This document shows positions 9,321 through 37,595 of a stretch of 41,453 bases of DNA, piece after piece (the first letter of the stretch is position 1; each line of letters opens with the position of its first letter). The stretch comes from Nitrospirae bacterium RBG_16_64_22 (GTDB lineage Bacteria > Nitrospirota > RBG-16-64-22). The notes beneath the pieces were generated by a model that was not told where the DNA came from, did not search any database, and worked only from the letters and a program-made list of their open reading frames with translations. A program made the translations under genes and the position numbers. Where the stretch lies: assembly GCA_001803795.1 (NCBI GenBank), contig MHEK01000060.1:5171-46623 (forward strand), in the 5' to 3' direction.

Positions 9321-9347
9321 CCTTTCCGCTTGCGCAATCAACATCTT

Positions 9348-9438
9348 GGGGCTGTAGCGCAGTTGGGAGCGCGTCCCGATCGCCTTCGGGAAGGTCAGGG
9401 GTTAGGAAGGGCAGTTGTTCCAGAGAGAGTTTCGGAAT
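9348..9438 (+). repeat. Defective tRNA-Ala copy 1 (91-bp tandem unit)
   Basis: The unit matches the real tRNA-Ala at 9530 through the acceptor 5' strand, D-arm, variable loop and 5' half of the T-stem. It carries a different anticodon arm: a 6-bp TCCCGA/TCGGGA stem closed over TCGCCT, which does not give a standard 7-base loop. After GGGGTT it departs completely, so the T-loop, the 3' acceptor strand and CCA are missing. It cannot fold as a tRNA. Confidence 0.85.
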
Positions 9439-9529
9439 GGGGCTGTAGCGCAGTTGGGAGCGCGTCCCGATCGCCTTCGGGAAGGTCAGGGGTTAGGAAG
9501 GGCAGTTGTTCCAGAGAGAGTTTCGGAAT
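9439..9529 (+). repeat. Defective tRNA-Ala copy 2 (identical 91-bp tandem unit)
   Basis: This is an exact copy of 9348-9438, directly abutting both copy 1 and the intact tRNA. Perfect identity between the two units points to a recent tandem duplication or to maintenance by recombination. The unit's last 36 bases are unrelated to tRNA. Confidence 0.85.
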
Positions 9530-9605
9530 GGGGCTGTAGCGCAGTTGGGAGCGCGCGTGAATGGCATTCACGAGGTCAGGGGTTCGATCCCCCTCAGCTC
9601 CACCA
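9530..9605 (+). tRNA. tRNA-Ala (GGC)
   Basis: A full cloverleaf of 76 bases with encoded CCA. The acceptor GGGGCTG pairs with CAGCTCC (one G-T pair), the D-arm is GCGC/GCGC, and the anticodon stem CGTGA/TCACG encloses ATGGCAT with anticodon GGC. The T-arm is AGGGG-TTCGATC-CCCCT and the discriminator is A. It decodes GCC and GCU. It is transcribed behind two defective copies of its own 5' half. Confidence 0.96.
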
Positions 9606-9626: not shown

Positions 9627-9776
9627 ATCCGCAGATGGACGCAGATAACGCACGGCAGAATCAAAGTAGTGTTACACACATCCGACTCACCTTCGGGGTG
9701 ATGCCGGTCTTCAAGAGAGGTTTCTAAGAAATCTGCGCTTATCTGCAAAATCTGCGGATGAACTGCTTTTTCTAGG
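9627..9776. repeat. Dispersed MITE-like repeat, copy A
   Basis: The ends are inverted (ATCCGCAGAT...GCAGATAA at the left, mirrored at the right) and are followed by GAACTGCTTTTTCTAGG, which recurs in copy B. It has no coding capacity. It belongs with 29547-29705 and 37481-37595. Confidence 0.65.
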
Positions 9777-9788
9777 ATGATTTCGCCC

Positions 9789-16520: not shown

Positions 16521-17144
16521 TCATCGTTCAACCAGTGCCGAAAATTCACGCGCGGCGGCCTGGATGTCGTCCTGGCCCAGAATGGCAGAGATCAGCCCCA
16601 CGCCAAAGGCCCCGGCTTCCAGAACTTCCCCGACCCGTCCGGCCGTGATTCCTCCAAGAGCGTAGACCGGGATTCTAAGCGACCGGCAGGTTTCTTTCAA
16701 TACCGGAACTCCGACGGGTTCTCCGTAGGCGGCCTTCGAAAGCGTCTCGTAGACCGGGCCAAACGTCACGAACTCGGCCCCGTTCGCTTGGGCCTCCGTT
16801 GCCTCCGCCAGGGAGTGCGTCGAGACGCCGACGCGCATCCCTTTCGGAACGACGGGCCTGATCCCCCCCACGGGAAGGCCGTTCTGGGGCAGGTGAACGC
16901 CGTCGGCTTCGGCGCAGATGGCGACGTCGAGACGGTCGTTGATGAAGAGGAGGGCGCCGTAGGCACGCGTGAGATCCCGCGTCTCCTCGGCCAGAGTCAG
17001 GAGATCGCGGATGGGGAGGTCCTTCTCCCGGAGCTGAACCATCCGAACGCCGCCGTCGAGGGCGGCCTTAACGGCTTCGGTCGGCGTTCCCTTCCGGACG
17101 ATACGCCGGTCGGTAATGAGACAGAGGCGAGGGAGGCTATTCAA
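16521..17144 (-). CDS. thiE: Thiamine-phosphate synthase
   Basis: Joins HMP-PP and the thiazole phosphate to make thiamine monophosphate. The 207-residue TIM barrel shows [51 protein letters not shown] and YALGGIT with the phosphate-binding Gly-rich end. The start is TTG 17144, overlapping the thiG end by 8 bp with AAGGGA upstream. It lies directly before the inserted R-M genes. Confidence 0.95.
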
Positions 17145-18075: not shown

Positions 18076-18279
18076 TCAAACCCCTCCCCCCATGAACGAG
18101 ACGACCTCGACGCGGTCGCCTTCAGAGAGGATCGTCTGTCCGTGCTCGGCGCGGGGAACAACCTTCTCGTTCAGCTCGACGGCGACGCGCCCTTGGACGA
18201 CGCCCATCTCGTCAATAAGATCGGCGACGGTTGTCCCCTCGCGAAAGACCCGTGACTCGCCGTTCACTTGCACGGTCAC
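18076..18279 (-). CDS. thiS: ThiS sulfur carrier with a one-residue C-terminal cap (GGGV)
   Basis: A 67-residue ubiquitin-like beta-grasp protein that donates sulfur to ThiG as a C-terminal thiocarboxylate. GTG 18279 is set by a GTGA overlap with the thiH stop and by GGAG upstream. The C-terminus reads FMGGGV then TGA, so the Gly-Gly that must be free for adenylation carries one extra Val. By analogy with HcyS and QbsE a peptidase would have to remove it. No ThiF and no peptidase are in this operon; candidates lie at 31522 and 35367. Confidence 0.93.
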
Positions 18280-19517
18280 CGGGCCGCTCCGTCCATCGCC
18301 CACTGCCGTTCCCGGAGCCGGGCCAGGCACTCACCCCGCGCTTGCGGGGCGCACTGGCACTCGCAGGCCGCATTTCCGGCCTCTTCCTCGTCGCAACGAC
18401 GGCAGAGATTCGGGATCCACCCCTCCCCCGTCATGTCTTCGACAACTTCCCGCAGAGACCGATGGTCCGCAAGCTCGAATTGCGCCACGTCCGCCGGCGG
18501 ATGGGGCCGGGCGTACCCTCCGGGCGACGTGGAGACGCCGGCCGAGAAGTGCGACGCGCCCGCGCGCGCGAGACGCTCCCGCATGGCCGGCAGTTCCCGC
18601 GTGGATACGGAGATCGGGCTCCACGGAAGCGCAAGGCGGTAGACGGCCGTGATCTTGAGAAGGTCGTCGTCGGAGACGGGACTGGGAGCCCGCGTCAGCG
18701 CGGCCCCCTCCGCCGGTCTCAGGCGGGGCACGGAGACCGAGACGGCGATCCCCCCGCCCCATCGCTCCCTCAGGTGCCCGGCGTGGGAAAGAAGCGAAAG
18801 AACATCGAACCGGTAGTCGTGCAAGCCCAGCAGGGTCCCTATGCCGAGATGTCGAAACCCGGCTTCCGCCGCCCGGTCCATCGTTCCCAGCCTGAAGGCG
18901 TAGTCGGCCTTCGGCCCTCCGATGTGAACCCGGACGTACGTCTCCGGATGATACGTCTCCTGGAACGACTGGTAGCGGGACGCGCCCGTATCGAACAGCC
19001 GCCTGAAGTCCTCGACGGCGAGCGGGGCCACGTTAACGGCCGCCTCGACGAAACCGCGCCGTCTCGCGGCCTCAATCGTAAGACTGACATCCTCGATGCC
19101 GGCGGCGTGACGGTCCTCCCCGGCTACGATGAGAAGCCGCGTGTGGCCGGTCCGCGCGAGCGCCTCAAGTTCGGACTCCACCTCTTCGCCGCCAAGCCAC
19201 TTGCGGTCGGCGCCCGCGCCGCGCCGGAAACCGCAGTAGAGGCAGTCGTTGGCACAGCGATTGGTAAGGTAGAGGGGAACGAAGAGAAGGCGGTGCCGGC
19301 CGAACGTCCGCAGGGCGACATCGCCAGCCGCCCGCAGGATCCCCGCGCGCGCCTCCTCATCTTCCACGGCGAGAAGATCGGCCGCGTCCTCGACGTTCAA
19401 GCCGCCGAGGGCGGACGCTTTCGCGAGGACCTCGTCCAGTCGGCCGGCATCCGGCGCGGGCCTCCGGGCGAGGGCGGAGACCGCGGCCGCGTCGAGGTTG
19501 AATGCCTGACGGTCCAT
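18276..19517 (-). CDS. thiH: 2-iminoacetate synthase ThiH (radical SAM tyrosine lyase) with HydG-like Cys tail
   Basis: Cleaves tyrosine to dehydroglycine for the thiazole ring. The 413-residue protein has the radical SAM motif CANDCLYC, followed by [11 protein letters not shown] and [12 protein letters not shown], typical of ThiH/HydG. The operon context (thiS, thiG, thiE, TPP riboswitch) supports ThiH. The C-terminus is unusual: CRRC, then 21 residues, then Cys, with three further Cys between, close to the CX2CX22C auxiliary-cluster motif of HydG. No hydrogenase genes are nearby. ATG 19517 lies just after the riboswitch terminator. Confidence 0.9.
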
Positions 19518-19533
19518 TCTCGATATTCCCCCG

Positions 19534-19565
19534 AAAAACAAAACGCCGCACCAGATGGCGCGGCG
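19534..19565 (-). terminator. Attenuator hairpin of the thiamine operon
   Basis: On the minus strand a 9-bp stem (19557-19565 with 19544-19552, one G-U pair, loop ATCT) is followed by TTTTGTTTTT. It sits between the TPP aptamer and thiH and is the likely expression platform: TPP binding would favour this terminator. Confidence 0.8.
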
Positions 19566-19585
19566 CCTATTCACTGCTGTCGACC

Positions 19586-19679
19586 GCTTCCCTACGCCGG
19601 CATGACCCGGATCAGGTGCAAGGGGTTGTTCCGCTCTCTCGGAACTCTCAGTCCTGGCCGCGCAGGACACCCCCAGCGT
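19586..19679 (-). promoter_or_regulatory. TPP riboswitch (THI element)
   Basis: The minus strand carries the conserved THI-box blocks in order: GGGGGTGTCC, CTGAGAG, ACCCCTTGCACCTGATCCGG, then GTCATGCCGGCGTAGGGAAG. It precedes thiH-thiS-thiG-thiE and should shut off the operon when thiamine pyrophosphate is plentiful. Confidence 0.96.
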
Positions 19680-20537
19680 CTATTTTATGCCATACAAGAA
19701 ATCATACGGCCCGCCGTTTCGGATTGTCAACGCGGATCGGCGGGACAGCGAATTTGCGGGGTATATCTCGACCGTAACCTGCCACTCTCCCTGCCCGACG
19801 GCGACGGAATCGAGGACCTTGTGGCCGGCCGACTCCGACATCCGTCGGATTTGCCCTTCGAGAGCACTGCTGTCGGTGATGATCGCGAGCCAAGTCCCCT
19901 TGCCGGCGGACTTGAGAAGACGATGGGTCCGAAGCGTGTCATCTTCGCCCCGGACATCAACGACGCGCGTCTGGGTCTCCCGGTATCTGTCCAGTTTCTT
20001 ACGGTCGATCGCCTTGATGCGGCCGTCTTCCGTCGAAAGCACCCCGGCGGCTTCGAGCTTCCGAAGGACGTCTCGAACGCGATCCCCGTGGAGCCCCATG
20101 CGCCCTGCCAGGTCCCCGACCGTCAATCCCGAGTCCGCGCCGGACAACGCATCGGCAACTCTGTTGAGATGATCGCCGATCAGCAGGTTTTCGATCTGCC
20201 GGTCCGTCTCCTGGAGTCGATTGCAAAGACTCTCGATCACCCCCATCGCCACACCGTCTTCCTTGCGTTGGCACTGGATCATGCCAAGGAAGTCCTGCCG
20301 GCTCATCGTCTGGAGCCGGGCGTTCTCCTCGACGACGGCCGAGGCCGAGCGGAGATTTCCCGTAATGATGGCCATCTCGCCGAAGAACTCCCCGGGCCCG
20401 AACACGGCAAGGGTTTTCTCAACTTCCTTCCCCTTTTTGACGATCTTCACCTTGCCGGACTTGACGATGTACATTGCCGATCCCGCATCACCCTCCCGGA
20501 AAACCACCGAGCCCTGCTTGTAGTCTTTCTCTTCCAT
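19680..20537 (-). CDS. CRP/FNR-type regulator with C-terminal TusA-like domain
   Basis: A 285-residue protein. Residues 1-115 form a cyclic-nucleotide-binding-type sensor domain (GEFFGEMAIITG is the phosphate cassette region, but the Arg of true cAMP binders is not obvious). Residues 120-185 are a winged helix-turn-helix (DLAGRMGLHGDRVRDVLRKL). Residues about 190-258 resemble the TusA/SirA fold (VVDVRGEDD, AIITDSSALEGQIRRMSESA, GEWQVTVEI) but lack the CPxP cysteine. Such a tail on a CRP protein is unusual. The target is unknown; its neighbours include the thiamine operon whose promoter it overlaps. Confidence 0.82.
   Translation of the reverse strand: MEEKDYKQGSVVFREGDAGSAMYIVKSGKVKIVKKGKEVEKTLAVFGPGEFFGEMAIITGNLRSASAVVEENARLQTMSRQDFLGMIQCQRKEDGVAMGVIESLCNRLQETDRQIENLLIGDHLNRVADALSGADSGLTVGDLAGRMGLHGDRVRDVLRKLEAAGVLSTEDGRIKAIDRKKLDRYRETQTRVVDVRGEDDTLRTHRLLKSAGKGTWLAIITDSSALEGQIRRMSESAGHKVLDSVAVGQGEWQVTVEIYPANSLSRRSALTIRNGGPYDFLYGIK
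19701..19730 (-). promoter_or_regulatory. Promoter of the thiamine operon
   Basis: On the minus strand TTGACA (19730-19725), an 18-bp spacer and TATGAT (19706-19701) predict a start near 19694, just before the aptamer. It lies inside the 3' end of the upstream CRP-like gene. Confidence 0.75.
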
Positions 20538-29546: not shown

Positions 29547-29705
29547 AACCGCAGTTCACTCACCGCAGAGGACGCGGAGTCCGCCAAGGAACACCTTTCC
29601 GGGCGGTTTTGATGCTCACCTGCCTGGTGAGGTCGATGTGTCTTCCCATCCATGGAACTCCTTTGCGTTCTCTGCGTGCTCCGCGGTTCAACTGCTTTTT
29701 CTAGG
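29547..29705. repeat. Dispersed MITE-like repeat, copy B
   Basis: The left end AACCGCAGTTCACTCACCGC mirrors the right end (GCGTGCTCCGCGGTTCAACTGC), and the tail AACTGCTTTTTCTAGG is shared with copy A (9627-9776). Non-coding. Confidence 0.7.
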
Positions 29706-29820
29706 TTCATTATTATCCGACCGTACCACCCTTATTCCACACCGGTCAAGGCGGGAACCGGTCGATCTACCCCGGCCCGGCCGGATGTGGTAGATTGACA
29801 CGCCCTGCCGGAGGATCGAC

Positions 29821-31335: not shown

Positions 31336-31365
31336 TTGACACCTTCCGGGCGTATTCCTTATTTT
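31336..31365 (+). promoter_or_regulatory. Candidate promoter of the sulfur-carrier operon leader
   Basis: TTGACA (31336-31341) is followed at 18 bp by TATTTT (31360-31365), predicting a start near 31373. It is the best promoter-like pair in the gap 31197-31521. Confidence 0.45.
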
Positions 31366-31372
31366 GGAGCCT

Positions 31373-31490
31373 ACAACTGAATACACGTGGATTGATTTGC
31401 GGCATATTGCAACCACGTTAAAAAAAGTGCTAAAAGGCCGGGTCAGGCATTTCGTCAACCCCGTGCGTCTTTTTGGCACGGGGTTTTTTT
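31373..31490 (+). ncRNA. Putative leader/small RNA ending in a terminator, before the JAMM operon
   Basis: A predicted start near 31373 and the terminator at 31457-31490 define about 115 bases. The 5' part can pair ACGTGG (31385-31390) with CCACGT (31413-31418), with TTGC/GCAA inside. No T-box, SAM or other known riboswitch motif is recognisable. It may be an attenuator for the downstream cysteine/threonine genes or an independent small RNA. Confidence 0.35.
31457..31490 (+). terminator. Intrinsic terminator upstream of the JAMM gene
   Basis: AACCCCGTGC (31457-31466) pairs with GCACGGGGTT (31476-31485) and a run of T follows to 31490. It lies 31 bp before the JAMM peptidase start. Confidence 0.8.
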
Positions 31491-31521: not shown

Positions 31522-32001
31522 ATGGAGGACGGAGTGGAGGACGAACAGCCGCCCGGCATCGAGATGGGGCCGGAGTCCTTTCGGGAGATGGTGGAGCACC
31601 TGAGGGCGCACGCCCCGAACGAGGCCTGCGGGATCCTGGCCGGAAGGGACGGGCGGGTCGTCCGCGTCTATCCCATGACGAACGTCGAGCCGACGCCCTA
31701 TTCGTACTTCATGGACCCGAAGGAGCAGTTCGCCGTCATGAAGGAGATGCGGAAGGAAGGGCTCTCTCTCGTGGGCATCTACCACTCGCATCCGTGCACG
31801 ACGCCTTACCCCTCCCGAAAGGACAGGGACCTGGCGTTCTATCCGGAGGCCGCCACGGTGATCGTCTCGTTCCGGGACCCGGGGGAACCCGAGGCGCGGG
31901 CCTACCGGATCGTGGAGGACCGCGTGACGCCCATCCCGATCATCGTCCCCGGCTCGCCGGGGCGAGTCGGGGAGAAGAGCGAAAAGCTGTCTGCGGCATG
32001 A
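31522..32001 (+). CDS. JAMM/MPN+ metallopeptidase (Mec/HcyD-like)
   Basis: A 159-residue zinc peptidase with the full JAMM motif: Glu34 (NEACGIL), then IYHSHP with His88 and His90, seven residues, Ser98-x2-Asp101. In mycobacteria Mec releases cysteine from CysO-Cys; in Wolinella HcyD trims a C-terminal residue from the sulfur carrier HcyS. Here it is first in an operon with a ThiS-like carrier ending GGGS, a cysteine synthase and later a CysO-like carrier ending AGGA, so both trimming and Cys-release roles are plausible. The start ATG has GGAG upstream. Confidence 0.93.
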   Translation: MEDGVEDEQPPGIEMGPESFREMVEHLRAHAPNEACGILAGRDGRVVRVYPMTNVEPTPYSYFMDPKEQFAVMKEMRKEGLSLVGIYHSHPCTTPYPSRKDRDLAFYPEAATVIVSFRDPGEPEARAYRIVEDRVTPIPIIVPGSPGRVGEKSEKLSAA

Positions 32002-32019
32002 GGAAAGGGACCTCGGATC

Positions 32020-32223
32020 ATGATGATTTCGCTCAACGGACAGAAGGAAACGTGCGATGACGGCGCCACGATCGCGTCGCTCCTCCAAAACAGAAACGTC
32101 CGCCCGGAGATGGTCTCGGTCGAGGTCAACGACTCGATCATCGAGCGCGGCCGATACGACCAGGTCCGCCTCAAAGAGGGCGACTCGGTTGAACTCCTCT
32201 ACTTCATGGGCGGAGGATCGTAA
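32020..32223 (+). CDS. ThiS-family sulfur carrier with one-residue cap (GGGS)
   Basis: A 67-residue beta-grasp protein (MMISLNGQKETCDDGATIAS...DSVELLYFMGGGS). It has the ThiS core but sits between a JAMM peptidase and a cysteine synthase rather than thiamine genes. The Gly-Gly end is followed by a single Ser, which should block adenylation until removed. By neighbourhood I infer a sulfur donor for cysteine synthesis. The cysM-like start lies inside its last 35 bases. ATG 32023 is a near-equal alternative start. Confidence 0.9.
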   Translation: MMISLNGQKETCDDGATIASLLQNRNVRPEMVSVEVNDSIIERGRYDQVRLKEGDSVELLYFMGGGS

Positions 32224-33148
32224 GACCGGCCCGGTCGGACGGAGCGTCCTCGACCTGATCGGCCGGACCCCTCTGGTCCGGCTCAGGGCCGTGGTTCCGG
32301 CGCGGGGCGCCGAGATCTGGGCCAAGATCGAGTCGTTCAACCCGGGCGGAAGCGTGAAGGACCGGATCGCCCTGGGGATGGTTGAGACCGCCGAGAGGCG
32401 GGGCCTGCTCAGGCCCGGATCGGTCATCGTCGAGCCGACGTCGGGAAACACGGGCATCGGTCTGGCGCTCGTCTCGGCCGTGAAGCGTTACCGGCTCATC
32501 CTCACGATGCCGGAGTCGATGAGCGAGGAAAGACGGCTGATCCTGGCGGCCTATGGCGCGGAGATCGTTCTCACGCCGGCCCGCGACGGGATGGCCGGGG
32601 CCGTGGAAAAGGCGCGGGAAATCGCGGCCGGCACGCCGGGGTCGTTCATGCCGCACCAGTTCGAGAACCCGGCCAATCCCGCGACGCACGGCCGGACGAC
32701 GGCGCGGGAGATCCTGGCCCAGACAGGGGGGCGGATCGCCGCCTTCGTCGCGGGCGTCGGGACGGGAGGCACGATCTCGGGGGTCGGCGCGGTCCTGAAG
32801 AAGAGTGTGCCGGGCGTCCGGATCTACGCCGTGGAGCCCGCGGGCTCGCCGGTCCTCTCCGGGGGGGCGCCCGGACCGCACCGTATCCAGGGGATCGGCG
32901 CGGGGTTCGTCCCGAAGACGCTCGACCGGAAGGTGATCGACGAGATCATCGCCGTGGACGACATGGACGCCTACCGCACGGCAAAACGCCTGGCGCGGGA
33001 GGAAGGTCTGCTCGTGGGAATCTCCGCCGGAGCGGCGGCGTTCGCGGCTGTCCGGGTGGCGGAGAGACTCCCCAAGGGGAAGAGGGTCGTCACGGTCTTC
33101 CCGGACGGCGGAGAACGGTACTTCAGCCTGGAGCCGTACTTCAGGTAG
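32189..33148 (+). CDS. cysM: PLP-dependent cysteine synthase (CysM/CysK family)
   Basis: A 319-residue fold-type II PLP enzyme with Lys57 in NPGGSVKDRIALG, PTSGNTGIGLA, the PLP-phosphate loop GVGTGGTISG and SGGAPGPHRIQGIGAGF. Relatives add sulfide, or the thiocarboxylate of CysO, to an activated serine. No ATG or GTG is available at the conserved N-terminus; TTG 32189, 8 bp after AGAGGG and inside the preceding carrier gene, gives the right length. Overlap with the carrier and the upstream JAMM gene reproduces the mec-cysO-cysM order of mycobacteria. Confidence 0.93.
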   Translation: MNSSTSWAEDRKTGPVGRSVLDLIGRTPLVRLRAVVPARGAEIWAKIESFNPGGSVKDRIALGMVETAERRGLLRPGSVIVEPTSGNTGIGLALVSAVKRYRLILTMPESMSEERRLILAAYGAEIVLTPARDGMAGAVEKAREIAAGTPGSFMPHQFENPANPATHGRTTAREILAQTGGRIAAFVAGVGTGGTISGVGAVLKKSVPGVRIYAVEPAGSPVLSGGAPGPHRIQGIGAGFVPKTLDRKVIDEIIAVDDMDAYRTAKRLAREEGLLVGISAGAAAFAAVRVAERLPKGKRVVTVFPDGGERYFSLEPYFR

Positions 33149-33166
33149 AACGGAGGTCGAAAGGGA

Positions 33167-34411
33167 GTGTCGCACGTCAAAGGTCTCAAATGCCGCGAAT
33201 GCGGGCGAAGTTATGCCAAGGCGCCGATCTACGTCTGCGAGTTCTGCTTCGGCTCGCTCGAAGTCGTCTACGACTACGAGGCGATCGGGAAGACGCTGAC
33301 CCGGGAAACGATCGCCTCCCGCTCCCCCTCGCTCTGGCGATACCGGGAGCTTCTCCCCATCGACGGGGAGCCGACCGTCGGCCTCTACTCAGGCTTCACG
33401 CCCCTCGTGGCCGCGGACAACCTGGCCCGGGAGCTCGGTCTGAAAGAGGTCTACGTCAAGGACGACGCCAACTGCCATCCCACGCTCTCGTTCAAGGACC
33501 GCGTCGTCGCCGTCGCCCTCTCGAAGGCGAAGGAGTTCGGGTTCGATACGGTCGCCTGCGCCTCGACGGGAAACCTCGCCAACTCGGTGGCGGCCCACGC
33601 CGCCCAAGCGGGACTCAAGCGGGTCGTCTTCATCCCCGCGGACCTCGAGATAGGAAAAGTCATCGGCTCCCTCATCTACGATCCCCAGGTGGTGGCCGTG
33701 GAGGGGAACTACGACCAGGTCAACCGCCTCTGCAGCGAAATCGCCTCGAAGTACACCTGGGGGTTCGTCAACATCAATCTGCGCCCGTACTACGCCGAGG
33801 GATCGAAGACCATCGCCTTCGAGGTGGCCGAACAGCTCGGATGGCGGACCCCGGACCATATCGTCGTCCCCGCGGCGTCCGGCTCCCTCTCGACGAAGGT
33901 CTGGAAAGGGTTCTCGGAGCTCGACAAGTTGGGCCTGATCTCGCGGGCGCGCGTGAAGGTCCACGTCGCCCAGGCCGAGGGGTGCTCGCCGATCGTCCAG
34001 GCGTGGAAGAGCGGCCGCGACGTCATCAAGCCGGTCGTGCCGAAGACGATCGCCAAGAGCCTCGCCATCGGAAACCCGGCCGACGGATACTACGCGATCG
34101 ACATGCTGAGGGCGTCGGGCGGCGACGCGGAGGCCGTCACGGACGACGAGATCGTCGACGCGATCAAGCTGTTGGCGCGGACGGAGGGGATCTTCGCGGA
34201 GACGGCCGGAGGCGTCACGGTGGCCGTCGCGCGGAAGCTCGCCCTGGCGGGGAAGATCGGGCGGAACGAGTCGCTCGTCATCTGCGTCACGGGGAACGGC
34301 CTCAAGACCCAGGAGGCGGTCGCCGGCAAGATCGGCGAGCCGATCCACATCCGGCCGAACCTGGCCGCCTTCGAGGCGGCCCTGGAGAAGAAGACGGCGG
34401 GCGTGGGGTAG
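33167..34411 (+). CDS. thrC: Threonine synthase with N-terminal zinc ribbon
   Basis: Converts O-phosphohomoserine to threonine. The 414-residue fold-type II PLP enzyme starts with a four-Cys ribbon (Cys9, 12, 24, 27), has the PLP Lys110 in TLSFKDRVV, CASTGNLANSVAAHAA and a Gly-rich phosphate site. The GTG start lies behind GGAGGTCGAAAGGGA, 18 bp after cysM. Placement among sulfur-transfer genes is notable: its substrate is also an acceptor for sulfur in homocysteine routes, though nothing in the sequence itself indicates such activity. Confidence 0.93.
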   Translation: MSHVKGLKCRECGRSYAKAPIYVCEFCFGSLEVVYDYEAIGKTLTRETIASRSPSLWRYRELLPIDGEPTVGLYSGFTPLVAADNLARELGLKEVYVKDDANCHPTLSFKDRVVAVALSKAKEFGFDTVACASTGNLANSVAAHAAQAGLKRVVFIPADLEIGKVIGSLIYDPQVVAVEGNYDQVNRLCSEIASKYTWGFVNINLRPYYAEGSKTIAFEVAEQLGWRTPDHIVVPAASGSLSTKVWKGFSELDKLGLISRARVKVHVAQAEGCSPIVQAWKSGRDVIKPVVPKTIAKSLAIGNPADGYYAIDMLRASGGDAEAVTDDEIVDAIKLLARTEGIFAETAGGVTVAVARKLALAGKIGRNESLVICVTGNGLKTQEAVAGKIGEPIHIRPNLAAFEAALEKKTAGVG

Positions 34412-34434
34412 AAGTTCGGAGATAGGAGTTAGGA

Positions 34435-34475
34435 GTCGAAAGTCGAAGGTTGAAGGTCGAAAGTTGAAAGTTGAA
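34435..34475. repeat. 7-bp tandem repeat (GTYGAAR)n
   Basis: Nearly six units (GTCGAAA, GTCGAAG, GTTGAAG, GTCGAAA, GTTGAAA, GTTGAA) lie just upstream of tusA. The unit is close to 7-bp repeats scattered in many environmental genomes. Confidence 0.9.
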
Positions 34476-34489
34476 CCTGGGGATCGGCC

Positions 34490-34771
34490 ATGGCGCAGGA
34501 ACAACCGAAGATGCTCTCGGCGGACGAAACGCCCGCCTTTGACGAGACGCTCAACATCCGCGGCGAGGTGTGCCCCTACACCTTCGTCCGGTCGAAGCTG
34601 AAGCTCGAAGACATGGAAGAGGAGCAGGTCCTCAGGGTGATCGTGGACTATCCCCCGGCGATCAAGAACGTCCCCCAGAGCGCGATCAACGAGGGAAACG
34701 AGGTCCTCGGCATCAAGCAGATCGAGGAGCGCGCCTGGGAGATCTACATCCGCAAGCGGGAAAAGAAGTAG
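34490..34771 (+). CDS. tusA: TusA/SirA-family sulfurtransferase
   Basis: A 93-residue protein with the TusA core LNIRGEVCPYTFVRSKLKLE; the Cys-Pro is the persulfide carrier site. TusA proteins relay sulfur from cysteine desulfurases or rhodaneses. Its place between thrC and the CysO-like carrier suggests it delivers sulfur to the carrier-adenylates made by the E1 at 35367. The C-terminal half is more acidic and basic-tailed than usual. Confidence 0.9.
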   Translation: MAQEQPKMLSADETPAFDETLNIRGEVCPYTFVRSKLKLEDMEEEQVLRVIVDYPPAIKNVPQSAINEGNEVLGIKQIEERAWEIYIRKREKK

Positions 34772-34931
34772 CAGGCTGCTGAAAAACAGTCCCGCAAGGC
34801 GGGACGCGCGGAGCATGGACGCGCCGCCAAATCGCGAAGATTTGAAGTCGAGCGATTTGAAAGACTTGCGCGAATTCACTTCGCGCAAGTCGTGGCTGAA
34901 AAAGCCATGGATGGACTTTTTCAGCATCCTG
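34772..34931. repeat. 160-bp MITE-like element abutting the tusA stop
   Basis: The left end CAGGCTGCTGAAAAACAGTCC (34772-34792, imperfect) mirrors the right end GGACTTTTTCAGCATCCTG (34913-34931). Internal hairpins include a perfect GACTTGCGCGAA/TTCGCGCAAGTC. It begins on the base after the tusA stop and ends just before the ribosome site of the next gene. No transposase. The reduced relative is at 24634-24667. Confidence 0.75.
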
Positions 34932-34951
34932 GTAAGAGGAGGATCGGAACG

Positions 34952-35230
34952 ATGGGTGTCAAGGTCAGGATTCCAACTCCCCTTCAAGCCCTCACGGGGA
35001 ACAACGCCGAAGTGGTCGCGGCGGGGGGAACGGTTCAGGAGGTGATCGACAGCCTCGAAGCCCAGTACAGCGGGCTAAAGGAAAGGATCTGCGACGAGGC
35101 CGGGAAGGTCCGCCGGTTCGTGAACATCTACGTCAACGAGGAAGACATACGCTTCCTTCAAGGCGAGACGACCCCCCTCAAGGACGGGGACGAGATCTCG
35201 ATCATCCCCGCCATCGCCGGCGGGGCGTAG
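34952..35230 (+). CDS. CysO/MoaD-like sulfur carrier with one-residue cap (AGGA)
   Basis: A 92-residue ubiquitin-like protein whose whole length follows mycobacterial CysO: VRIPTPLQALTG, EVIDSLEAQYSGLKERIC, RRFVNIYVNEEDIRFLQG and GDEISIIPAIAGGA. CysO as I know it ends Gly-Gly; here one Ala follows before TAG, as in Wolinella HcyS, whose Ala is removed by the JAMM peptidase HcyD. ATG 34952 has GGAGG 9 bp upstream. It probably donates sulfur as a thiocarboxylate to the operon's PLP enzymes. Confidence 0.92.
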   Translation: MGVKVRIPTPLQALTGNNAEVVAAGGTVQEVIDSLEAQYSGLKERICDEAGKVRRFVNIYVNEEDIRFLQGETTPLKDGDEISIIPAIAGGA

Positions 35231-35262
35231 GGAAAGGGAATCCGGAACCACTCCGCTTTCCG

Positions 35263-35292
35263 TTTCGTTTCCAGAACGGGAACCGCTATACT
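35263..35292 (+). promoter_or_regulatory. Weak promoter candidate before the E1 gene
   Basis: TATACT (35287-35292) is a good -10, but the -35 region (TTTCGT, 35263-35268, 18 bp away) is poor. The 136-bp gap 35231-35366 has no gene and could allow separate expression of the E1-NIL-bioB part. Confidence 0.4.
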
Positions 35293-35366
35293 ATCAACCC
35301 GTCCCAGGCATAGGACGTGCCCGGTACTACTGCGGCCTGCTGGAAGCGCGTGAAGGGTTCATATCC

Positions 35367-36179
35367 ATGAAGAAACTCGAACTGAGCGACGATCAGGTCA
35401 AGCGGTACTCCCGCCATATCCTCCTTCCGGAAGTCGGCGGCAAGGGCCAGCGGAAGATCCTCGAAGGCCGCGTCCTCGTCATCGGAACGGGCGGTCTGGG
35501 CGCGCCCGTCTCCTTCTACCTGGCCGCGGCCGGGGTCGGAACCATCGGCCTCGTGGACAGCGACACGGTGGAGGTGAGCAATCTCCAGCGGCAGATCATC
35601 CACTTCACCCATGATATCGGGAAGCACAAGACCGACTCGGCCAGGGAGAAGATGGAGGCCCTCAACCCGGACATCAAGGTCGTCGTCCACAAGACGCGCG
35701 TCTCCTCGGAGAACATTCTGTCGATCATCGCCGACTACGACGTCGTCGTCGACGGGAGCGACAATTTCCCGACCCGCTACCTCGTGAACGACGCCTGCGT
35801 CTTGTCGGGCAAGCCCCTCTCTCACGGCGGGATCTTCCGGTTCGACGGCCAGGTCACCACGATCGTCCCCGGCAAGGGCCCGTGCTACCGGTGCCTCTTT
35901 CCGGAACCGCCGCCGCCAGGACTCGTCCCATCCTGCCAGGAGGCGGGGATCCTCGGGGTCGTGGCGGGGACGATCGGCGTGGCCCAGGCGACGGAGGTCC
36001 TCAAGCTGTTGATCGGGATCGGCGAACCGCTCATCGGGCGTCTTCTCGTGTACAACGCGCTAGAGATGAAGTTCCGGACGGTCAAGGTGCCGAAGAACCC
36101 GCAGTGTCCGGTCTGCGGACCGCACCCGACGATAACGGAATTGATCGACTACGAAGAATTCTGCAGTCTGAGGAGCTGA
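35367..36179 (+). CDS. ThiF/MoeB/HesA-type E1-like adenylyltransferase
   Basis: Activates the C-terminal glycine of beta-grasp carriers with ATP for sulfur loading. The 270-residue protein has ATP loop GTGGLG (40-45), the Arg in SNLQRQ, Asp130 in VVDGSDN, zinc cysteines 173/176 and 247/250, and the crossover-loop Cys190 in SCQEAG. It has no rhodanese domain, so sulfur must come from elsewhere, for example TusA. It is the only E1 in the window and the obvious activator for the three carriers at 18076, 32020 and 34952. Confidence 0.95.
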   Translation: MKKLELSDDQVKRYSRHILLPEVGGKGQRKILEGRVLVIGTGGLGAPVSFYLAAAGVGTIGLVDSDTVEVSNLQRQIIHFTHDIGKHKTDSAREKMEALNPDIKVVVHKTRVSSENILSIIADYDVVVDGSDNFPTRYLVNDACVLSGKPLSHGGIFRFDGQVTTIVPGKGPCYRCLFPEPPPPGLVPSCQEAGILGVVAGTIGVAQATEVLKLLIGIGEPLIGRLLVYNALEMKFRTVKVPKNPQCPVCGPHPTITELIDYEEFCSLRS

Positions 36180-36181
36180 CC

Positions 36182-36421
36182 GTGCCGAATCGAAGAGTCC
36201 GTCTCACGTTCCCGCAGGAACTCATCACCGAACCGGTCATCTACACGATGGCAAAGCGGTTCGACATCATGCCGAACATCCGCCGCGCCAAAGTGACCGA
36301 GACCGTCGGCGAGGTCGTCCTGGAGCTCGTGGGCGAGGAGCAATCCCTCGACAAGGGCGTCGCCTACCTCGTCGAGCGCGGCGTCAAGGTCGAGGATCTG
36401 CCCGGAGATATCGTTGAATGA
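36182..36421 (+). CDS. Stand-alone NIL-domain protein
   Basis: A 79-residue ACT-like NIL domain (RRVRLTFPQELITEPVIYTM, then VGEVVLELVGEEQSLDKGVAYL). NIL domains occur at the end of methionine ABC ATPases and beside ferredoxin domains in proteins of homocysteine biosynthesis. GTG 36182 follows the E1 stop by 2 bp with GAGGAG upstream, so coupling is tight. I infer a sulfur-amino-acid sensor or scaffold for the operon. Confidence 0.85.
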   Translation: MPNRRVRLTFPQELITEPVIYTMAKRFDIMPNIRRAKVTETVGEVVLELVGEEQSLDKGVAYLVERGVKVEDLPGDIVE

Positions 36422-37480: not shown

Positions 37481-37595
37481 GAACCGCTGAGCGCGCAGAG
37501 AACGCAAAGCAGTCTCTGTACGCGTGAAAAGCGCCCGAAAAAGATTTCCCTCTGCGTGCTCCGTGTCCTCTGCGGTGAATGAACTGCGGTTTCCC
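37481..37595. repeat. Dispersed MITE-like repeat, copy C
   Basis: GAACCGCTGAGCGCGCAGAG at the left mirrors TCCTCTGCGGTGAATGAACTGCGG at the right; the internal part differs from copies A and B. The gap 37450-37743 otherwise shows no gene. Confidence 0.65.

What the first reader, a model, noticed from the sequence alone, without database searches (positions are those of the whole stretch)
31522..36179. Sulfur-carrier hub: capped ubiquitin-like carriers, one JAMM peptidase and one E1
Seen: within one plus-strand block lie a complete JAMM peptidase, a ThiS-like carrier ending GGGS, cysteine synthase, threonine synthase, TusA, a CysO-like carrier ending AGGA and a ThiF/MoeB E1. Together with ThiS at 18076 (GGGV), all three beta-grasp carriers in the window have exactly one residue after Gly-Gly, each a different residue. 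Known: HcyS of Wolinella carries an extra Ala removed by the JAMM enzyme HcyD; QbsE also needs JAMM processing; mycobacteria use Mec-CysO-CysM. Inference: a single peptidase decaps, and a single E1 activates, several carriers serving cysteine, thiamine and maybe other products. One-to-many capping looks new to me.
Basis: partly seen in the sequence, partly recalled or inferred. Interest (0 to 1): 0.85.

Follow-up and report, generated by a model that had tools for sequence, protein, structure and literature searches.

The report
One protease trims several sulfur carriers
In this uncultured Nitrospirota bacterium a SAM-riboswitch-controlled operon encodes what is probably the cell's only dedicated protease for trimming the tails of its ubiquitin-like sulfur carriers; survey data suggest that this protease lets the carriers' tails drift or fuse to other enzymes, a layout already partly known from Streptomyces and Deinococcus but here extended to thiamine and cysteine synthesis.

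Summary
The genes and tails are as described, with corrections: two carriers end Gly-Gly-Gly plus one residue (GGGS, GGGV) and one ends AGG plus A; the genome also has MoaD on another contig and a second, nif-linked E1. One JAMM was found (89% complete genome). The cap residue is not conserved: within the genus V becomes F and S becomes A, and across Nitrospirota tails run from 0 to about 20 residues. Caps follow JAMM presence at genus level (capped carriers in 45/53 JAMM+ versus 2/11 JAMM- genera), including thiamine ThiS, which lies far from the JAMM gene. Elsewhere the tail is a whole enzyme: ThiS-CysK, CysO-NIL, CysO-CysK, MoaD-MoaE. Best reading: one JAMM is a general maturation protease cutting after Gly-Gly, and short caps are tolerated drift. 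One JAMM plus one E1 serving two capped carriers is already known genetically in Streptomyces platensis, so the principle is not new. New here: a conserved SAM-II riboswitch with a terminator heads the operon; ThiS-CysK fusions occur in JAMM operons; cysK of this genus lacks a usable start codon in its own frame at the thiS stop. Decapping itself is inferred, not shown.

The parts
31336..31365 (+). promoter-like sequence (TTGACA at 31336-31341), conserved in three species
   Evidence: (no more such sites than chance expects in the region) and alignment of G000, G001, G002
31377..31453 (+). SAM-II-type (SAM_alpha, RF00521) riboswitch aptamer heading the operon
   Evidence: Rfam 38.9 bits, gathering 36; 41.5 and 39.4 bits at the same place in G001 and G002
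31457..31490 (+). rho-independent terminator hairpin between aptamer and JAMM gene
   Evidence: fold -19.2 kcal/mol, z -6.55, followed by a run of T; identical stem in three species
31522..32001 (+). JAMM/MPN+ metalloprotease, 159 aa
   Evidence: PF14464 2.3e-27; invariant JAMM residues; model pLDDT 86.5 matches 2kks, PfJAMM1 and PfJAMM1-SAMP2
32020..32223 (+). ThiS-type sulfur carrier next to cysK, ends FMGGGS
   Evidence: TIGR01683 72.7 bits, cut-off 37.5
32255..33148 (+). cysteine synthase (CysK type); true start unresolved (CTG 32255, ATG 32057 inside thiS, or +1 recoding at the thiS stop)
   Evidence: TIGR01139 433.6 bits; start-codon survey
33167..34411 (+). threonine synthase
   Evidence: TIGR00260 297 bits, cut-off 167
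34490..34771 (+). TusA-like sulfur-transfer protein
   Evidence: PF01206 5.2e-21
34952..35230 (+). CysO/SAMP1-like sulfur carrier, ends IAGGA
   Evidence: PF02597 1.8e-20; NF041918 63.5 bits, cut-off 60; CysO 3dwg 2e-24
35367..36179 (+). E1-like adenylyltransferase (MoeB/ThiF type, no rhodanese domain)
   Evidence: PF00899 1.9e-85; best NCBIfam MoeB and UbaA models
36179..36421 (+). stand-alone NIL domain protein (start approximate)
   Evidence: PF09383 2.2e-18; kept beside CysO in most relatives
18076..18330 (-). thiamine ThiS, ends FMGGGV
   Evidence: TIGR01683 77.7 bits
17137..17928 (-). ThiG
   Evidence: ORF, read as ThiG from its sequence; used as the ThiG query that finds thiS neighbours across relatives
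16521..17144 (-). ThiE
   Evidence: ORF, read as ThiE from its sequence
18276..19670 (-). ThiH-like radical SAM enzyme (start downstream of the riboswitch)
   Evidence: TIGR02351 290.7 bits, below its cut-off of 380
19572..19684 (-). TPP riboswitch of the thiamine operon
   Evidence: Rfam RF00059, 75.7 bits

Best explanation
The block is a SAM-controlled sulfur-carrier operon for sulfur amino-acid synthesis. Its single JAMM acts as a general maturation protease: it cuts after the Gly-Gly(-Gly) of the ThiS-type carrier, the CysO-like carrier and, in trans, the thiamine ThiS (in sister species also MoaD-MoaE). The exposed glycine is then adenylated by the operon's E1 and thiocarboxylated with sulfur relayed by TusA. 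ThiS-COSH feeds ThiG; the cys-linked carrier feeds CysK, where the JAMM may also release product from the carrier, as Mec does. The single-residue caps are not signals: they are tolerated drift, the short end of a range that reaches whole fused enzymes. Shown: the genes, the tails, the riboswitch-terminator, one JAMM, and the genus-level co-occurrence of caps with JAMM. Inferred: every enzymatic step, the carrier-to-pathway assignment, and the direction of SAM control.
For: One Prok-JAB besides RadC in the genome. No thiF in the thi cluster; the other E1 is nif-linked. Any capped carrier in 45/53 JAMM+ versus 2/11 JAMM- genera of Nitrospirota (Fisher 3.7e-5); thiamine ThiS alone 31/44 versus 2/10 (0.005). 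Of 16 JAMM-less genomes in JAMM-less genera 14 have only bare carriers; of 11 JAMM-less genomes whose genus mates have JAMM, 10 have caps, as assembly gaps would give. Tail residue and length unconstrained. In-frame fusions right after the glycines: ThiS-CysK in 14 Omnitrophota, Margulisbacteria/Saganbacteria and unnamed loci (L177, L179, L182, L183, L185, L186, L188, L194, L205, L207, L214, L215, L237, L248), CysO-NIL (L190, L247), CysO-CysK (L181), and 19 MoaD-MoaE fusion genes among the JAMM+ genomes sampled. Precedents: PMC6006322, PMC8832034. SAM-II aptamer and terminator conserved in three species.
Against: No biochemistry. At single-genome level the ThiS association is not significant (p 0.22) and only MoaD is (p 0.007); the genus-level call was chosen after seeing that and does not correct for phylogeny. 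Two JAMM-less singleton genera have caps (G314, reported 100% complete; G246). Bare GG carriers beside the JAMM gene (e.g. L042, L052, Nitrospira-like genomes) show that decapping is not its only reason to be kept. The own-genome MoaD is probably not fused: 190 nt between markers versus 195 in the fused sister, a different frame.
Confidence: 0.6

Rival explanations
1. Operon-dedicated Mec-like enzyme. The JAMM serves only the carriers of its own operon, mainly releasing cysteine (or another product) from carrier-product conjugates, as Mec does for CysO-Cys; the Val on thiamine ThiS is removed by another peptidase or does not matter.
For: Gene order JAMM-carrier-cysteine synthase as in mec-cysO-cysM; JAMM kept where the adjacent CysO-like carrier already ends in bare GG (L022, L042, L044, L052, L054); in other phyla thiamine ThiS is often bare although a JAMM is present.
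Against: Caps on unlinked thiamine ThiS and MoaD follow JAMM at genus level; MoaD-MoaE fusions need a cut after Gly-Gly and a JAMM makes it in Deinococcus.
Confidence: 0.22
2. Ubiquitin-like conjugation. The SAMP1-like carrier, UbaA-like E1 and desampylase-like JAMM form a reversible protein-modification system; caps are precursor tails as in eukaryotic ubiquitin-like proteins.
For: Carrier passes the SAMP1 model (63.5 bits, cut-off 60); E1 scores high on UbaA; JAMM model matches PfJAMM1-SAMP2.
Against: JAMM 82.6 of 130 bits on the desampylase model and E1 378.6 of 450 on UbaA, both below cut-off; no E2 or E3; neighbours are cysteine and threonine synthases, TusA and a SAM riboswitch, pointing to sulfur metabolism.
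Confidence: 0.1
3. The caps are inert: E1 and ThiG tolerate a residue beyond Gly-Gly-Gly or cytosolic peptidases trim it, and the JAMM correlation is phylogenetic.
For: Genome-level association weak for ThiS; two capped genera without JAMM.
Against: The thiocarboxylate forms on the terminal glycine, so a further residue blocks it by mechanism (established chemistry); in S. platensis deleting the JAMM abolishes use of capped carriers (PMC6006322).
Confidence: 0.08

Closest known systems
PtmS1 (JAMM), PtmS2/PtmS3 (carriers capped MV and C), PtmS4 (E1) of Streptomyces platensis (PMC6006322)
   Same: one JAMM, one E1, at least two capped carriers; JAMM and E1 deletions abolish carrier use, deletion of one carrier does not
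   Different: serves thioplatensimycin/thioplatencin; its other two carriers are bare; no cysK-fused or capped thiamine ThiS reported in the text read
JAB-E1-ThiS/MoaD-cysteine synthase operons, type 4c (and 4e) of Iyer et al. 2006 (PMC1779556)
   Same: same four components in one operon; the paper already proposed that JAB frees fused ThiS or MoaD
   Different: E1 here lacks the rhodanese domain listed for 4c; two carriers, thrC and NIL present; that paper reported no JAB in thiamine or Moco operons, whereas here thiamine ThiS and MoaD depend on a JAMM encoded elsewhere (inferred)
DRJAMM with MoaD-MoaE of Deinococcus radiodurans (PMC8832034)
   Same: JAMM cuts after MoaD Gly-Gly in a natural fusion, as expected for G001 and G002
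   Different: one substrate described; not described as part of cysteine synthesis
Mec-CysO-CysM of mycobacteria (own knowledge; CysO structure 3dwg)
   Same: JAMM, carrier and cysteine synthase adjacent; CysO-like carrier also in the operon
   Different: carrier beside cysK is ThiS-type and capped; synthase scores as CysK, not CysM; CysE is present
HcyS/HcyD of Wolinella and QbsE/QbsD of Pseudomonas (own knowledge)
   Same: JAMM removes residues beyond Gly-Gly before E1 activation
   Different: each JAMM paired with one carrier

Membership tests
JAMM/MPN+ metalloprotease | E-xn-H-S/T-H-x7-S-xx-D motif | tested here: met
   E34, H88, S89, H90, S98, D101 invariant in 17 sequences
JAMM/MPN+ metalloprotease | MPN fold | tested here: met
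   model pLDDT 86.5; Foldseek 1.9e-14 to 2kks, 6.2e-12 to PfJAMM1-SAMP2
JAMM/MPN+ metalloprotease | zinc-dependent cleavage after carrier Gly-Gly | not testable with these tools
   needs protein
Archaeal desampylase (NF041370) | curated score 130 | tested here: not met
   82.6 bits
SAMP-activating E1 UbaA (NF047750) | curated score 450 | tested here: not met
   378.6 bits
Iyer type 4c operon | ThiS/MoaD, E1, JAB and cysteine synthase together | tested here: met
Iyer type 4c operon | E1 fused to rhodanese domain | tested here: not met
   270-aa E1, only the ThiF domain above cut-off; TusA gene instead
Mec-CysO-CysM | CysO-like carrier | tested here: met
   3dwg 2e-24
Mec-CysO-CysM | CysM-type synthase | tested here: not met
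   cysM model 303 of 394 bits; cysK passes; own CysE found
One JAMM, one E1, several capped carriers (S. platensis type) | single carrier-type JAMM in genome | tested here: met
   genome 89% complete
One JAMM, one E1, several capped carriers (S. platensis type) | single carrier E1 in genome | tested here: inconclusive
   second E1 in nif cluster
One JAMM, one E1, several capped carriers (S. platensis type) | JAMM needed for use of several carriers | not testable with these tools
   needs deletion or purified proteins; co-occurrence only
SAM_alpha (SAM-II) riboswitch RF00521 | score at or above gathering | tested here: met
   38.9 versus 36, and 41.5 and 39.4 in two sister species
SAM-II long loop RF01726 | score at or above gathering | tested here: not met
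   41.5 versus 44

The most novel reading that the evidence does not exclude
In this genus cysK is reached by a +1 frameshift at the thiS stop (GGA-TCG-TAA-G), so that under SAM-riboswitch control ribosomes make both free ThiS-GGG-S and a ThiS-CysK polyprotein, which the one JAMM cuts after Gly-Gly-Gly: a recoded version of the direct ThiS-CysK fusions seen in other phyla. CTG initiation or the upstream out-of-frame ATG would explain the missing start codon without recoding, and no classical slippery sequence was recognised.
Probability: 0.1. Interest if true: 0.8.

Novelty: new variant of a known kind. Interest (0 to 1): 0.5.

Why it matters
If right, one protease gates thiamine, cysteine and, in sister species, molybdopterin synthesis, and its presence explains why sulfur-carrier tails drift or fuse to partner enzymes in some lineages but stay bare in others, much as deubiquitinases free eukaryotic ubiquitin from fused precursors. 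It predicts that losing the JAMM forces bare carriers, and it ties the system to SAM level through a riboswitch. It also warns annotators that a carrier with extra residues after Gly-Gly implies a JAMM.

Tried and rejected
Cap residue as a conserved signal: rejected; it varies within the genus and A, S, C, R lead a broad list. A dedicated JAMM or E1 per carrier: not found. Second Prok-JAB hit on C94: RadC. Weak PF02597 hit on C13: below cut-off and no carrier gene seen there. MoaD-MoaE fusion in the own genome: first assumed from the long open frame, then rejected as the two lie in different frames across exact-length masked runs. TTG 32189 as cysK start: absent in G001 and G002. Genome-level Fisher tests gave p 0.22 for ThiS and CysO, probably because JAMM-less calls include assembly gaps; the genus-level version is reported as post hoc. 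A control set from other phyla could not be drawn because only Nitrospirota handles could serve as a centre. Literature searches gave no open text on ThiS-CysK fusion or on SAM-II before a JAMM operon; absence from the held library is not proof.
Full report
What is there. The window lies on contig C60 of a 2.38-Mb Nitrospirota MAG (89% complete); the nearest named contig is Nitrospirae bacterium NC_groundwater_891 (94% JAMM identity). The thiamine ThiS (GGGV) sits with thiG, thiE and thiH on the other strand 13 kb away, under a TPP riboswitch.

A SAM-II-type riboswitch aptamer at 31377-31453 passes the Rfam cut-off here and in both sister species; it is followed by a strong terminator hairpin (-19.2 kcal/mol, z -6.55) with an identical stem in all three, just before the JAMM gene. 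The operon is therefore probably controlled by SAM through transcription termination; direction and binding were not tested. None of the eleven loci from outside the genus that were scanned had it.

How many enzymes per carrier. The genome has one Prok-JAB protein besides RadC. It has two E1 proteins: the operon's, and one between nif-specific ferredoxin and nifV, where a nitrogenase role is more likely. No thiF accompanies the thiamine genes. A fourth carrier, MoaD, lies on C16; its tail is masked. The sister species G001 and G002 have MoaD fused to MoaE, but the spacing in the own genome (190 versus 195 nt) puts the two in different frames.

Is the cap conserved? No. Thiamine ThiS ends V here and F in G001; the cys-linked ThiS ends S, A, S; the CysO-like carrier ends A in all three species; in G003 (same class) the tails are 14, 3 and 0 residues. 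Across JAMM+ Nitrospirota the short tails run from none to about 20 residues, with A, S, C and R the commonest first residues. Several JAMM operons hold a CysO with bare Gly-Gly, so decapping cannot be the only task of the JAMM.

Does the JAMM go with caps? Of 380 Nitrospirota genomes, 344 have the JAMM. Comparing carriers genome by genome gives a significant association only for MoaD (p 0.007; ThiS 0.22), because many JAMM-less calls fall in genera whose other members have it. Calling JAMM by genus, capped carriers occur in 45/53 JAMM+ and 2/11 JAMM- genera (p 3.7e-5), thiamine ThiS in 31/44 and 2/10 (p 0.005). This step was chosen after seeing the first result and ignores phylogeny, so it is support, not proof. 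The exceptions are G314 and G246. In the clearest JAMM-free lineage (family f5) every ThiS and MoaD recovered with a glycine end is bare. In other phyla thiamine ThiS is sometimes capped (Saganbacteria, Omnitrophota, Acetocimmeria) and sometimes bare despite a JAMM (Phycisphaerae, Actinomycetes), as a permissive model predicts.

Fusions. In 14 JAMM operons (Omnitrophota, Margulisbacteria/Saganbacteria, one unnamed bacterium) the ThiS-type carrier runs in frame into CysK right after Gly-Gly-Gly; CysO runs into NIL (L190, L247) or CysK (L181); MoaD-MoaE fusions are common. Short caps and whole-enzyme tails look like one continuum that a protease cutting after the glycines would resolve.

The cysK start. 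In the three species of the genus cysK lies in the +1 frame of thiS and has no shared ATG, GTG or TTG near its beginning; the choices are an ATG deep inside thiS (32057), CTG 32255, or recoding at the thiS stop. Separate cysK genes in the other relatives checked have ordinary starts. This is unexplained.

Mechanism. Best reading: one JAMM matures several carriers, one E1 activates them, TusA relays sulfur, and CysK and ThiG use the thiocarboxylates. The JAMM fold and motif are clear, with PfJAMM1-SAMP2 among the closest structures. All enzymatic steps are inferred. The main rival is a Mec-like enzyme dedicated to its operon.

Known versus new. S. platensis has one JAMM, one E1 and two capped carriers, with deletion evidence (PMC6006322); Deinococcus JAMM cuts MoaD-MoaE (PMC8832034); mycobacterial MoaX is cut at Gly82 by an unidentified protease (PMC4326299); Iyer et al. 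2006 described the operon type and proposed JAB cleavage of fused ThiS or MoaD (PMC1779556). New here, as far as the held literature shows: thiamine ThiS among the presumed clients, caps as drift that follows JAMM across a phylum, ThiS-CysK fusions in JAMM operons, and SAM-II control.

Noticed in passing
window 31377-31490: SAM-II-type riboswitch followed by a strong terminator upstream of the JAMM operon, conserved in three species of the genus.
   Followed up: yes
window 32057-32291: cysK has no usable conserved start codon in its frame; it sits in the +1 frame of thiS at the sequence GGCGGAGGATCGTAAG.
   Followed up: partly
L177, L179, L182, L183, L185, L186, L188, L194, L205, L207, L214, L215, L237, L248: In-frame ThiS-CysK fusion proteins in JAMM operons of Omnitrophota, Margulisbacteria/Saganbacteria and an unnamed bacterium.
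   Followed up: partly
L190, L247, L181: CysO-NIL fusions (two Deltaproteobacteria MAGs) and a CysO-CysK fusion.
   Followed up: no
L009 (G000:C93): Second E1 between nif-specific ferredoxin III and nifV in a nif cluster with PII-like genes; the organism probably fixes nitrogen.
   Followed up: partly
window 9347-9605: Two perfect 91-nt tandem copies that resemble a broken tRNA-Ala directly before the intact tRNA-Ala(GGC) gene.
   Followed up: no
window 29547-29598, 37540-37591, 9739-9782, 29668-29711: Intergenic repeat family (CACCGCAGAGGACGCGGAG-like) scattered in the window.
   Followed up: no
window 34815-34950; L002 1818-2153: A shared intergenic sequence (read FTSRKSWLKKPWMDFFS in one frame) before the CysO gene and after radC.
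   Followed up: no
e.g. G344:C1:219415, G341:C3:41428: A second class of Prok-JAB protein (about 170-240 aa, 30-40 bits) in several Nitrospirota families, function unknown.
   Followed up: no
window 19572-19684: TPP riboswitch heading the thiamine cluster; it overlaps the 5' end of the longest thiH-like ORF, so its true start is downstream.
   Followed up: no
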